Source: Bolinopsis microptera
Lineage: Eukaryota; Ctenophora; Tentaculata; Lobata; Bolinopsidae
DNA length: 64,000 bases
Assembly (NCBI RefSeq): GCF_026151205.1
Contig: NC_087082.1
Coordinates: 558,001 to 622,000 of the forward strand
Direction: 5' to 3'
The position numbers and the translations under genes are program-made. Within the stretch, counting starts at the first letter, position 1, and every line of letters starts with the position of its first letter. Of this stretch, positions 2,884 through 61,800 are shown in pieces. Below the pieces are notes generated by a model. That model made no database searches. It was given only the letters and a program-made list of their open reading frames with translations, and was not told the DNA's origin.

Positions 2884-5800
2884 TCACGTGATCCGTAATT
2901 TCTTAACCGAAGGATTGCTACCCTCAACTTCGTGTGCCTGTTTTTCTGTCCACTTGTCAGAATTCTGTATTGCTACCCATCCTGTAGCTGTCTTCGTTAC
3001 TGGTCCGTTTGAAAGCACTGCCTGAAAAATAGCATGTATGACACACGAGTATTGAGGAACATATTATGATATTATGAGTCTAAAAACCACAATTTCACAA
3101 ACACGATCATCTTAAGTAAAAGGTTTACAAATGAGTCCTACCTTGTACTCTCCAACATTAAACGGCTGCAAATTGTCGATGACGTAAGTAAGATTGAGCC
3201 AGTTTGAGTTTAGCGAGGGTGATGCTGCGGCTAGCAACACATCTTCATCTTCTTCCGTCTAGGATTCAATTTTGTGACTTTTTTTTGAAGATCACGAGAA
3301 ATTCACTAAAAGATATGAAGAATAAATATGAGTATAAAATAGTATGACGAATAAAAGATATGTAAAATGTAAATTTGAATCCTTCGGCTTCCTGTAATTG
3401 GTTGGTTACACTTGTGTAACAATGTGGCTGTTGGAATATCCGAATTAATATAAGTGTTGAGATTTATAAAAAAAAGTATCTCTAGCCCAAAATTATTTCG
3501 GGTGCTAGTACAGACCTTGAAGATAGAAAGTCTAAGTTTATCGGATCCGTACGCCACCACGTTCAGTTTTACCTCCTTACCTCGAGCACTCGTCACATTA
3601 TCGAGCACTTCAGCAAACTGGGGTTTAAAAAGTAATTAAACTAATTGTGAGCACTTCAGCAAACTGGGGTTTAAAAAGTAATTAAACTAATTGTGAGCAC
3701 TTCAGCAAACAGGGGTTTTAAAAGTAATTAAACTAATTGTGAGCACTTCAGCAAACTGGGGTTTCAAAAGTAATTAAACTAATTGTGAGCATTTTAGCAA
3801 ACTGGGGTTTTAAAAGTAATTAAACTAATTGTGAGCACCTCAGCAAACTGGGTTTTAAAAAGTAATTAAACTAATTGTGAGCACTTCAGCAAACTGGGGT
3901 TTTAAAAGTAATTGAACTTTTATGTTCATTTTTATTGATTTTGTAAAGTTGTACTTATCACGAATCAAACGTTAGTCATCGTTCAATGTTACCACAAAGC
4001 CTTTACAACTTTAAGATCGTTCAAAAGATACTAACTTAGGTAACTATGGTAATAGAAAGATACTAACTTAGGTAACTATGGTAATAGAAAGATACTAACT
4101 TAGGTAACTATTGTAATAGAAAGATACTAACTTAGGTAACTATTGTAATAGAAAGATACTAACTTAGGTAACTATGGTAATAGAAAGATACTAACTTAGG
4201 TAACTATTGTAATAGAAAGATACTAACTTAGGTAACTATGGTAATAGAAAAATACTAACTTGTGGCTCAATAAACCCGGAGGGAACATCATCAAATGTAT
4301 TATCGAACAAGTGATCCTCTTCCATTGTCTGTAAATCATTAGCCACATTAGAGTTATTGGTCACGTTCACCCAGAACGACAGTTTTCTGTTTAAGTCATT
4401 TCCAGCTGCAACAACCACATATTTCCCTGTAAAATGTGAGTTACCTTATCGGACCTTATTTGGACGGACATTACTTGAACGCTGGAGGCCCTAGCGTTCA
4501 TCTTAATGTCCGTTCAAATAAAGTCCGTTCAATTAATGTCCGTCCAAGTTAAAGTCCGTTGAAATTTTTTCAAAAATTGTTCCATTTCGAACTTTTTACC
4601 CAGAATATGACAACTATGAGAACTTTATTGTGCCGTAAGTTAACGACGGAAAGGTTCTCCTTGGTCTGCCGGAGGCACAGAAAACTTTAGCTTTACTAGT
4701 ATATGATGTTTTCAAGGGTCACTTGGCGGAAAAAGTCAACGAAATCATGACACTCAACAACATAGTTCATGAGCTAGTCCCCGCCAACATGACAAACTTG
4801 TTCCAGCCTCTAGATATTACGGTAAATCGTGTTGCCAAGGACATTGTCCGACGTTTTTATAGTTCATATTACTGAGGGGAGGTAATGAAACAGTGCTAGG
4901 AAAGCTCCACGTGATGTTAAGGTTAACCTTAAGTTGTCTAAGATAAAACCACTTCACGCCGAATGGCTTGTAAAAGTTAACACTGAAATGCAGGACCAGG
5001 GTAGTTTGATAAAAAAGGTTTCCACAAAGCTAGAAATCACTGATGCTTGTTTAAGCATGGACTATTTCATGCACGAAAACCTATTTAATGAAGATGATAT
5101 GTGATATTAGACACTGATCATGTACACATATTTTAACATTTTTACTGCTTAATGACTGCTATTCTTACTTACTGTATAAAAAATGGATTAAAAAATCATT
5201 TGCTGAAATTAAAAAAACGTCAAAAATCAAAAAAAATTCGGATTTTTGATGGTTTTGAATGCCTTCGAGCGTTCATATTAATGTCCGTTCACAATTATGT
5301 CCGTTCATGTAATGTCCGTCCAAATAAGGTCCGATAAGGTAAATTTATAGTTATACATGTTACACATGAGTTAAATTACCCCTCTTATTTTGGGCAGATC
5401 TAAATTTCGAATCTGAGAGACTGTAAAATTTCCCTGGTCAGTGGTCATAGACAGCTTAGGATTACCAAAGCTGTCTATGACCTTTTAGTTCCTTAGTTAG
5501 TTAGCCTGCAGCTTTAAGTTCTTATGTTTTAATACCGCGTTTTTACCCTGGTCGTCGGGCGTAGCCTCCTCTTTGTAGAACTGCACGGTCAAGTATGTCG
5601 CTGTGATGACGTCACGTGAGCTGATGACATCACGTGACTTGATGACGTCACGTGATTGATTATTTCTTCGTGACCGTCCTATCTTGAGGTTATCTTCCAC
5701 TTTACTCCACAAATAATCCTGCACTCGGTAAACAAGTATCCTGCACATATTTAATGTTACAACTTTCGGAATGAAATATTTGTTAATTTAGCAATTTTTG

Positions 5801-58800: not shown

Positions 58801-61800
58801 TTAGAATTTAACTCTTTCGAATCGAAAGTCAACTAATTTTTTCAGTCCCATGGACTGGGTTTTATTTTTGCAATGATGATTTTCATAATATATAACCTGT
58901 AATACTATTCTGTATATATCTAATTTCGTTTTCCAAAAAAAACAAACTAATATAGCTACTAACTAATATAGCTACTAACTAATATAGCTACTAACTAATA
59001 TAGCCACTAACTAATATAGCTACTAACTAATATAGCGACGACGGTGAACCCCAGGAAGTATTGAGGAAGTCTGTGTAGAAAGGTTATGTGTTGTTCTCTT
59101 GTCTTCGTTACATCATTCCATCGGAACACTTTAGTTTTGGTCAGTTTGTACTTTACCCTCACTTCTGCCTGAATGCAGAGTGAACTAAGAATATCTTGAA
59201 AAATTTAAAATTCGCATGACAGGGATGTGATGATGGTGAACTCATATTAAAATTGATATTATCAATATTTCATTTAATATAGTAGTGTAACTATGGCAAC
59301 TAGTAGTGTAACTATGGTAACTAGTAGTGTAACTATGGTAACTAGTAGTGTAACTATGGTAACTAGTAGTGTTACTATGGTAACTAGTAGTGTAACTATG
59401 GTAACTAGTAGTGTTACTATGGTAACTAGTAGTGTAACTATGGTAACTAGTAGTGTTACTATGGTAACTAGTAGTGTAACTATGGTAACTAGTAGTGTTA
59501 CTATGGTAACTAGTAGTGTAACTATGGTAACTAGTAGTGTAACTATGGTAACTAGTAGTGTAACTATGGTAACTAGTAGTGTAACTATGGTAACTAGTAG
59601 TGTAACTATGGTAACTAGTAGTGTAACTATGGTAACTAGTAGTTAATGTGCCTTACCGAAGCACTCCTACTGTTAGTTGTACCCCAGGTGTGTGCTATAG
59701 TACTCTGCTGTCGCTTCCAAAACGTCACGAATATCGCTAGCCAGGCCATCATGATTATAGAAAATACTATAACTGCACCGTTGTTAGCCACACTCGTTAT
59801 CTACAATGGAGAATCAATAATTCAAAATGTTTATTACAACGAGAACTGGCGAGTACATTATTAACGATGAACAGAAAAAAGTAAATATGAATGAAATAAG
59901 AACTTCTTGATTATTACACTGGTAGTGAAGCAATAGTCTGACAAATAAGTAGCGTTGCAGGTTCCATCTATATAGCAGTCCGCACACATCAAATATTTTT
60001 CCCCGCTTTCACAAATATGCCGTGCTGTGTCAGTCCAAGTCATCTGCAGCAGACCGTATATGAAAACAGCAGTTCCTGCTATAGCAGGTATCACCAGGGA
60101 CATGTTGTAGAATCCTGGAATACACACACCGGCTTTAGTGGGGACTACTCTAAAGGTTTTAAACGGACAAATTAAATTCAAGTGTTCCTAGATGTTTATT
60201 CGCTTATAGTATAGGTCCCAATGTTATTGCGGGTATGGTATTTCTTACTGCACACTACGGTGTTTTGGTGACATAATTCCGATATACTGAGCTACTCCTT
60301 GTATAATGTATATCTGGGTTTATTTAGAAGCATTCAATTCTACACAATTATGAATTGTTTGAAAAGATTTACATTTTTTAAATGTGTGAGTTTCTGAACA
60401 TCCAACTGTATCAGAAGCATGGAAAGTTTGTGACTGGATTCCATAAAAATTATTTGCTAAGTCTATGATGCTGATATCTCAGAAGAAATGTGACTCACCC
60501 ACCCCCCCCCCCCCCCCCCTAGCATGTGACTCACCCCCCCCCCCCCAGTATGTGACTCACCGACATAAGCAAAGTACATGGCAGTAACAGATCCGAAGTA
60601 GTTTCTCACAATGTTGAGGGGTTGGAACTTCCACTTCATATGAGACGAGCTCCAAAAGTACCGCAGTAACTTTCTGGGATTGTCTATCTGTTCTGAGGGC
60701 GAGGAGAGAGCTGTTACTGCTGATCTTGCTGGAAATGAAATAACCTGTTATCATAATCTGATATTTCAGAGCAAAAAGTTAAGACACAAGTGCCATACCT
60801 TCGATGTCGATCTCACTCCACTTTTGTTTTTTTCCAGAGACATCACATCTAATCTTATACCCTCCAGCATGTAGCGGGTATGCTGTTTCAAAACACCCCT
60901 CTCGGTACATGTCGCTCAGCTTGTAACCAGCTTTTAACTTGCTTTCATTTGCTTCTGGGTTTTCGAGAATCCTGAATACCTGGGAGAAACAGCATTACAA
61001 CATCTCGAGTACCAAGGAGACTGAATCAGTCCCTACCAGTCTCAGACTGATAGCGGGCAACATTAACATGATCAAACTGAACTGCAAGTAAGTTTGAAAT
61101 TCCGATTACAAGACCCACAAAAAGGTATTCAATATTAAAATATACTATACGTATTATATATAATAATATATATAATACTAATTATTAGTAGTAGTAGTAG
61201 TAGTAGTAGTAGTAGTAGTAGTAGTAATTACCATTAGTGATCTCTCTGATCTGTTGTAGAACTCAGGGTCATCGTGACCAAGAAATTTAGTTTTCTTTGA
61301 GTAGTTGAACGGAGCTCGGATCGCTCTGTAAAGAAGATATTTGTGAGTAGTTAGTAGCTATATAAGTCTGTTGTATAGTCAGATACAAAACTTAATCTCT
61401 TTAAACCAGGTCAGATGGACAACAAAGATATCAAATGATCTGTATTAAATGATCTGTTCTGATAATTTGCCTTTCTCTAGACTTAGAGTTAGAGTTATAG
61501 AGTATGAGGTATAACTGTACTAAAGTATTTAAAAAACCTGGCGAGGAGATTGTCTTTAGTTAAGTTGAGTCTGTCATCGCTGCGATGTAGGATAGAAAAG
61601 ATAGCGTTCTCTATTTTAGTGGTCCACAACTTGTGATACCGTTCATTTTGGAAGGTAAGTTGTTTGAACGCAGCTGACTCTCTGTACTCGCTTTCACCTT
61701 TCTTCCTACCGTTCTCCATCTAGGTTTATAAATTGTTTAGATTCACAACTAAGCAAGAGCGAATAAACATAATACATATACATTATACATGTATCTATTC

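What the first reader, a model, noticed from the sequence alone, without database searches (positions are those of the whole stretch)
3603..61227. Minisatellites repeatedly seeded at exon-intron boundaries in two unrelated genes
In gene A and the anoctamin gene, at least ten tandem arrays begin at a splice junction, and most units contain the junction itself with 2 to 48 exonic bases. Donor copies occur at exons ending 17269, 15791, 9558, 4260, 59028 and 60561. Acceptor copies occur at exons starting 7073, 5970, 3617 and 57975. Unit lengths and sequences are unrelated, so this is a repeated process and not one spreading repeat. Possible explanations are intron growth by tandem duplication of junction DNA, or tolerance of duplications that keep a working splice site.
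Basis: seen in the sequence. Interest (0 to 1): 0.92.

Follow-up and report, generated by a model that had tools for sequence, protein, structure and literature searches.

The report
Repeat arrays spanning exon-intron junctions
In this invertebrate genome short stretches of DNA straddling splice sites have been copied head to tail many times, but in the genes we could check this happens about as often as random copying inside short introns would give, and the same kind of array is already known from lancelets.

Summary
In a ShK/Ig-domain gene and an anoctamin gene (both minus strand), tandem arrays contain splice junctions. An eleventh (5818-5898) was missed.

Related genes show recent duplication in existing introns. 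A near-identical anoctamin paralog has an 84-copy acceptor array and a fresh 2-copy donor duplication that the window copy lacks; the window's own 16-bp donor array is missing from more distant paralogs.

A junction preference is not supported outside the window's first gene. In 13 anoctamin copies and 3 cation-channel genes (117 introns), 7 of 45 arrays cross a junction; random placement over such short introns predicts 8.0. The first gene alone exceeds expectation (7 of 15 against 2.6), but it was picked for this pattern and its exon model is incomplete.

Best reading: random local tandem duplication plus copy-number growth, tolerated at junctions because the exon-proximal copy keeps a working splice site. 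The class is known as amphioxus 'mirages'. Which copies are spliced is untested.

The parts
16393..17308 (-). Gene A: 51 bp x 18.0 array containing the donor of the exon ending 17269; 40 exonic bp in the array
   Evidence: use of the next donor meets a stop
14880..15815 (-). Gene A: 60 bp x 15.6 array containing the donor of the exon ending 15791; 25 exonic bp
9145..9606 (-). Gene A: 100 bp x 4.6 array containing the donor of the exon ending 9558; 49 exonic bp
7061..7705 (-). Gene A: 39 bp x 16.4 array containing the acceptor of the exon starting 7073; 13 exonic bp; reading frame stays open through the repeat
5963..6577 (-). Gene A: 41 bp x 15.0 array containing the acceptor of the exon starting 5970; 8 exonic bp
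5818..5898 (-).
4024..4261 (-). Gene A: 32 bp x 7.4 array starting at the donor of the exon ending 4260; only 2 exonic bp
3603..3918 (-). Gene A: 46 bp x 6.9 array containing the acceptor of the exon starting 3617; 15 exonic bp
9665..14495 (-). Gene A: 38 bp x 127 array wholly inside an intron, ending about 10 bp from the acceptor (exon starts 9654); does not cross
17376..17587 (-). Gene A: 8 bp x 26.5 array wholly inside an intron, ending about 6 bp from the acceptor (exon starts 17369); does not cross
58945..59036 (-). Anoctamin: 16 bp x 5.8 array containing the donor of the exon ending 59028; 9 exonic bp; the paralog P3 has 39.4 copies; P2, P4 and L021 have none
60508..60561 (-). Anoctamin: 26 bp x 2.1 array at the donor of the exon ending 60561 (GTGAGTCACAT plus G run); 1 exonic bp
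57943..58099 (-). Anoctamin: acceptor region of the exon starting 57975 repeated once upstream (41 of 54 bases), with a 21-bp satellite at 57991-58053 between the copies; several copies in P3, none found in P2, P4, L021
59280..59643 (-). Anoctamin: 21 bp x 17.3 array inside an intron; 4.3 copies in P3; no array in P2 and P4
57826..62127 (-). Anoctamin gene copy P1 (10 exons identified; one of four copies in a C11 cluster)
2890..17872 (-). Gene A: protein with ShK and Ig domains, 12 exons identified, probably incomplete

Best explanation
These are ordinary intronic minisatellites in a genome rich in them, some of whose founding duplications happened to span a splice junction. Step 1 (shown by paralog comparison): a tandem duplication of about 16-118 bp arises at some place in a gene. 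Step 2 (inferred from copy numbers): the array grows or shrinks by slippage or unequal exchange. Step 3 (inferred, supported by reading frames): a duplication inside an exon changes the protein and tends to be removed, but one across a junction leaves an intact junction on the exon side, so the extra copies become intron and persist. Because most introns here are only about 200 bp, a 30-60 bp duplication often crosses a junction by chance. No junction-seeking process is needed for the genes sampled outside gene A.
For: Paralogs with and without the array: P3 carries a 37 bp x 84 acceptor array and a 31 bp x 2 donor duplication that the near-identical P1 lacks; L023 carries a 65 bp x 30 acceptor array absent from L020; L024 a 51 bp x 2.6 acceptor array absent from L025; L025 a 54 bp x 2.6 donor array of which L024 has about 1.6 copies (by eye). 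Anoctamin introns c-d, h-i and i-j are at the same places in paralogs without the crossing arrays, so the arrays sit in old introns. Placement test: 7 of 40 arrays cross in 88 anoctamin introns, expected 6.95; with three channel genes, corrected, 7 of 45, expected 7.99; grouped 6 of 28, expected 5.43, P = 0.47. No array wholly inside 16,566 bp of aligned anoctamin exon. Arrays of period 8 or more cover 24% of 264 kb read. The donor word GTAAGT is not enriched in units: 3 of 198 against 3.7 in shuffles. Splicing to the next copy would add a stop in 12 of 17 junction arrays tested and shift the frame in 3 more.
Against: Gene A exceeds the expectation: 7 of 15 arrays against 2.63, P = 0.003. Non-crossing arrays lie nearer to junctions than uniform (scaled distance, mean 0.35 where 0.5 is expected, KS p = 0.0075 for 35 arrays; mean 0.38, p = 0.06 for 20 groups). 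One array outside gene A is an exonic in-frame repeat (L033, 18 bp), so duplications inside exons are not always removed. Junction-crossing duplications might be expected to be partly harmful, so equality with a neutral expectation could hide a modest seeding bias. The sample is small, mostly one gene family, some introns rest on distant alignments (L020, L022, L023, L026-L028), and no RNA was seen.
Confidence: 0.77

Rival explanations
1. Junction DNA is a preferred seed: something at splice sites (for example the GTTACC-type motif next to donors, or transcription-coupled breakage) makes tandem duplications start there.
For: Gene A 7 of 15 against 2.63; end bias of non-crossing arrays; three gene A donors (exons ending 15791, 9558, 4260) are followed within about 20 bp by TTACCATRGTTAC; GTTACC in 31 of 198 units.
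Against: No excess in 117 introns outside gene A after correction (7 of 45 against 7.99; grouped 6 of 28 against 5.43). Many crossing units, including those of P3, L023, L024 and L025 and at 3603, 5963, 7061 and 16393, lack the motif.
Confidence: 0.13
2. The repeats are alternative splice sites with a function: copy choice makes variable proteins.
For: Two of 17 junction arrays stay open and in frame if the next copy is spliced: the 39-bp acceptor array at 7061-7705 and the 54-bp donor array of L025.
Against: 12 of 17 meet a stop and 3 shift the frame.
Confidence: 0.05
3. The exon models are wrong and the 'junctions' are simply array edges.
For: Gene A phases fail at 3 of 11 introns. Two apparent crossings in the channel gene L033 proved to be model errors when read by eye.
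Against: Anoctamin junctions agree between paralogs with and without arrays. Eight of 11 gene A phases agree, and an I-set Ig match runs over residues 73-167 of the joined gene A protein, which spans E3-E5.
Confidence: 0.05

Closest known systems
'Mirage' minisatellites of amphioxus (Adh3, globin genes BflGb6 and BflGb9; PMC3087553, passages)
   Same: Minisatellite-like tandem copies of exon-intron boundaries, at donors and acceptors, with exonic and intronic bases in the unit; variable copy number; many units carry AG/GT signals. Adh3 units are 10-72 bp; units at junctions in this window are 16-100 bp.
   Different: Different animal (probably a ctenophore, inferred). Copy numbers here reach 84. 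Presence and absence are seen between paralogs, not between haplotypes. No RNA evidence here; the amphioxus paper says its RT-PCR and the Adh3 data suggest no interference with regular splicing.
[quoted passage not shown] Drosophila, PMC2891723, abstract)
   Same: Tandem duplication crossing an intron-exon boundary (potato case) supplies splice signals.
   Different: In the anoctamins no new intron is made: the arrays lie in introns whose positions are shared by paralogs without the crossing arrays. Not tested for gene A.
Introner elements (recalled, no call)
   Same: Repeated units linked with splice sites.
   Different: Introners are a dispersed sequence family that creates introns; here most units differ from array to array and no intron creation was seen.

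Membership tests
Mirage minisatellites | Tandem repeat with minisatellite-sized unit | tested here: met
   TRF units of 16-100 bp at the window's junctions, 2.1 to 18 copies
Mirage minisatellites | Unit spans an exon-intron boundary | tested here: met
   8-49 exonic bases in 7 of the 10 named arrays; marginal (1-2) in 2; 1 is a two-copy duplication
Mirage minisatellites | Both 5' and 3' boundaries affected | tested here: met
   Donor and acceptor arrays in gene A and in anoctamins
Mirage minisatellites | Copy number differs between haplotypes or cells | tested here: inconclusive
   Differs between paralogs (5.8 against 39.4 copies; about 1.6 against 2.6); alleles not seen
Mirage minisatellites | Splicing stays normal | not testable with these tools
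   No RNA data; frames argue that the exon-proximal copy is used in most cases
Intron gain by tandem duplication | A new intron at a position without an intron in relatives | tested here: not met
   Anoctamin introns c-d, h-i and i-j occur at the same places in paralogs without the crossing array; gene A not tested
Introner elements | One dispersed sequence family makes the introns (definition recalled) | tested here: not met
   Units differ; the most shared motif of the eight counted is in 31 of 198 units

The most novel reading that the evidence does not exclude
Some genes of this genome undergo a biased process in which duplications start at or next to splice junctions, perhaps helped by a dispersed GTTACCATRGTTAC-type motif beside donors, making junction copying a main engine of intron growth in this lineage.
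Probability: 0.13. Interest if true: 0.65.

Novelty: new member of a known kind. Interest (0 to 1): 0.38.

Why it matters
It shows, with near-identical gene copies with and without the array, how an intron can grow more than tenfold (252 to 3590 bp) by repeating its own splice junction. It also gives a simple null expectation (unit length against intron length) that any claim of junction-seeded repeats must beat. If the excess in gene A proved general, it would point to a mutational process tied to splice sites.

Tried and rejected
Tried: a junction preference, tested on anoctamin paralogs and on three four-domain cation-channel genes as a second family. It was not supported outside gene A. 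Two apparent crossings in the channel gene L033 were dropped or changed after reading the sequence by eye: an 18-bp array is in-frame coding and was removed, and an 11-bp x 338 array was set to end 9 bp before the better acceptor TTTCAG. Before these changes the count was 9 of 46 against 8.15 expected, P(at least 9) = 0.43.

The P1/P3 duplication at the i-j acceptor is not a TRF array in these counts and is in neither the observed nor the expected number. Arrays at introns whose flanking exons failed the score limit were left out, among them a 57-bp array in L024 and L025. Two marginal donor arrays (P1 e-f and L027, 1 exonic bp each) count as not crossing. Grouping of paralogous arrays was automatic and lumped some dissimilar short-period arrays. 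A first frame test used a wrong phase for the exon ending at 5871 and did not compare stop and next-donor positions; it is replaced.

Rejected: coding use of most of the repeats; intron creation in the anoctamins; enrichment of GTAAGT in units.

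Full report
WHAT WAS CHECKED. The window is C11:558001-622000 of a 264.65-Mb, 232-contig assembly. The record is unnamed. Size, contigs numbered at least to C13, and a contig of at least 25.4 Mb fit the published figures for the ctenophore Bolinopsis microptera (265 Mb, 13 chromosomes, largest 26.2 Mb; table passage of PMC11797021 seen). The scaffold number there, 346, differs from 232. That identity is an inference and was not tested. Gene A, on the minus strand, encodes a protein with ShK and Ig domains. 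The second gene is an anoctamin, also on the minus strand (PF04547 matches; exons).

OBSERVATION. TRF finds the arrays and the sequence shows them. I wrote a spliced protein-to-DNA aligner. For gene A I placed junctions from open frames and GT/AG sites. Exonic bases inside the arrays are 40, 25, 49, 2, 13, 8 and 15 for the seven named gene A junctions (17269, 15791, 9558, 4260, 7073, 5970, 3617), and 9 and 1 for the two anoctamin donors. The 57975 acceptor has one extra intronic copy, 41 of 54 bases identical. Gene A is not fully modelled: codon phase agrees at 8 of 11 introns, so exons are probably missing or misplaced in E2-E3, E5-E6 and E8-E10.

PARALOGS WITH AND WITHOUT ARRAYS. The window anoctamin (P1) has three further copies within about 85 kb: P2, P3 and P4. 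The ten P3 exon matches are 94.9-100% identical to P1 in protein. Intron c-d is 252 bp in P1 and 3590 bp in P3; the difference is mainly an 84-copy array of a 37-bp unit crossing the acceptor by 8 exonic bases. Intron i-j of P3 has a perfect 31-bp two-copy duplication across the donor with 25 exonic bases, absent in P1, P2, P4 and L021. The 16-bp donor array of intron h-i has 5.8 copies in P1 and 39.4 in P3 and is absent in P2, P4 and L021. The i-j acceptor duplication was found in P1 and P3 only. Elsewhere, L023 has a 65 bp x 30 array carrying 59 exonic bases that its paralog L020 lacks. L024 has a 51 bp x 2.6 acceptor array that L025 lacks. L025 has a 54 bp x 2.6 donor array of which L024 has about 1.6 copies, by eye. 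These are direct cases of recent junction-spanning duplication in introns that already existed.

IS IT MORE THAN CHANCE? For an array of unit u in an intron of collapsed length L, a randomly placed founding unit that touches the intron crosses a junction by at least 3 bp with probability about 2(u-3)/(L+u-1). In 88 introns that passed the score limit in 13 anoctamin copies (P1-P4, L020-L028; median length 228 bp, 196 bp collapsed), 7 of 40 arrays of period 8 or more cross, against 6.95 expected. One of these 7 is in the window. Adding three four-domain cation-channel genes (L032-L034) gives 117 introns and 9 of 46 crossing against 8.15. By eye, two channel calls were wrong: one array is in-frame coding and the other stops short of the better acceptor. 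Corrected, 7 of 45 cross against 7.99; grouped by paralogy, 6 of 28 against 5.43, P(at least 6) = 0.47. No array lies wholly inside the 16,566 bp of aligned anoctamin exon. Several of these genes (L020, L022, L023, L026-L028) were aligned with distant queries, so single junctions there are less sure.

RESULTS THAT POINT THE OTHER WAY. Gene A has 7 of 15 arrays crossing against 2.63 expected, P = 0.003. It was chosen for this pattern, and missing exons would shorten its introns and raise the expectation. Arrays that do not cross lie nearer to junctions than uniform: 35 arrays, mean scaled distance 0.35 where 0.5 is expected, KS p = 0.0075; 20 groups, mean 0.38, p = 0.06. A mild bias toward intron ends is therefore possible.

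UNITS. Arrays of period 8 or more make up 24% of 264 kb (198 arrays), a sample weighted to anoctamin neighbourhoods. GTAAGT is not enriched in units (3 of 198, shuffle mean 3.7). GTTACC is (31 of 198, shuffle mean 2.0), and GTTACCATRGTTAC occurs in 13 of 198. The shorter word GTTACCATRG also occurs outside arrays (27 sites in 321.5 kb). So the units are not wholly unrelated, although many crossing units lack the motif.

HOW IT WORKS. I asked what would happen if the copy next to the exon-proximal one were spliced instead. Of 11 donor arrays (7 in the window, 4 in P3, L025 and L027), 7 meet an in-frame stop first, 3 shift the frame and 1 (L025) stays open. Of 6 acceptor arrays (3 in gene A, 3 in P3, L023 and L024), 5 bring in a stop and 1 (7061-7705) stays open. 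The simplest account is that the exon-proximal copy is spliced and the other copies are intron. That is inferred; no RNA was seen.

WHAT IS KNOWN. [quoted passage not shown] It says the same was named 'mirages' in Adh3 (its reference 68, Canestro and colleagues 2002; that paper is not held), and that Adh3 data and its own RT-PCR suggest normal splicing. Intron gain by tandem duplication across a boundary is described for potato (abstract) and from duplicated coding sequence in Drosophila (abstract). My searches for the phenomenon in ctenophores showed no such paper among the titles and abstract starts listed (10 of 24 papers listed; 2 of 2). Searches without the word ctenophore turned up only the amphioxus paper as an example of boundary minisatellites, judged from listings. 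The library lacks most subscription journals. The Hormiphora genome paper reports 13% of the genome as repeats by TRF (passage).

VERDICT. A real, clear example of a known kind, in what is probably a new phylum for it, with good duplication evidence. A junction preference is unproven and, in the sample tested, not needed.

Noticed in passing
window 800, 2756; arrays 4024, 9145, 14880, 57991, 59280; L024 about 2021: A GTTACCATRGTTAC-type motif recurs in array units and in single-copy DNA, and stands close behind several splice donors; it resembles an RFX X-box (recalled).
   Followed up: partly
window 22304-24562 and 26480-28735: Two similar ORFs of about 750 aa with a NERD nuclease-related domain and weak NTPase matches; a similar ORF stretch lies in L012 (2482-3928).
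   Followed up: no
window 18853-20369: A 1.5-kb (AG)n dinucleotide run upstream of gene A's first exon.
   Followed up: no
C11:615826-700744 of G000: Four anoctamin copies in a cluster on the same strand; P1 and P3 nearly identical, P2 and P4 more distant.
   Followed up: partly
L033, about 3497-7213 of its reverse complement: An 11 bp x 338 array (3.7 kb) in a cation-channel intron, ending just before the acceptor.
   Followed up: partly
L023 1418-3367: A 65-bp unit holding almost a whole small exon plus its acceptor, repeated 30 times: a tandem exon array whose copies lack the donor.
   Followed up: partly
L033, about 1509-1592 of its reverse complement: An 18-bp in-frame coding repeat in a channel linker, close to the predicted exon end.
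   Followed up: no
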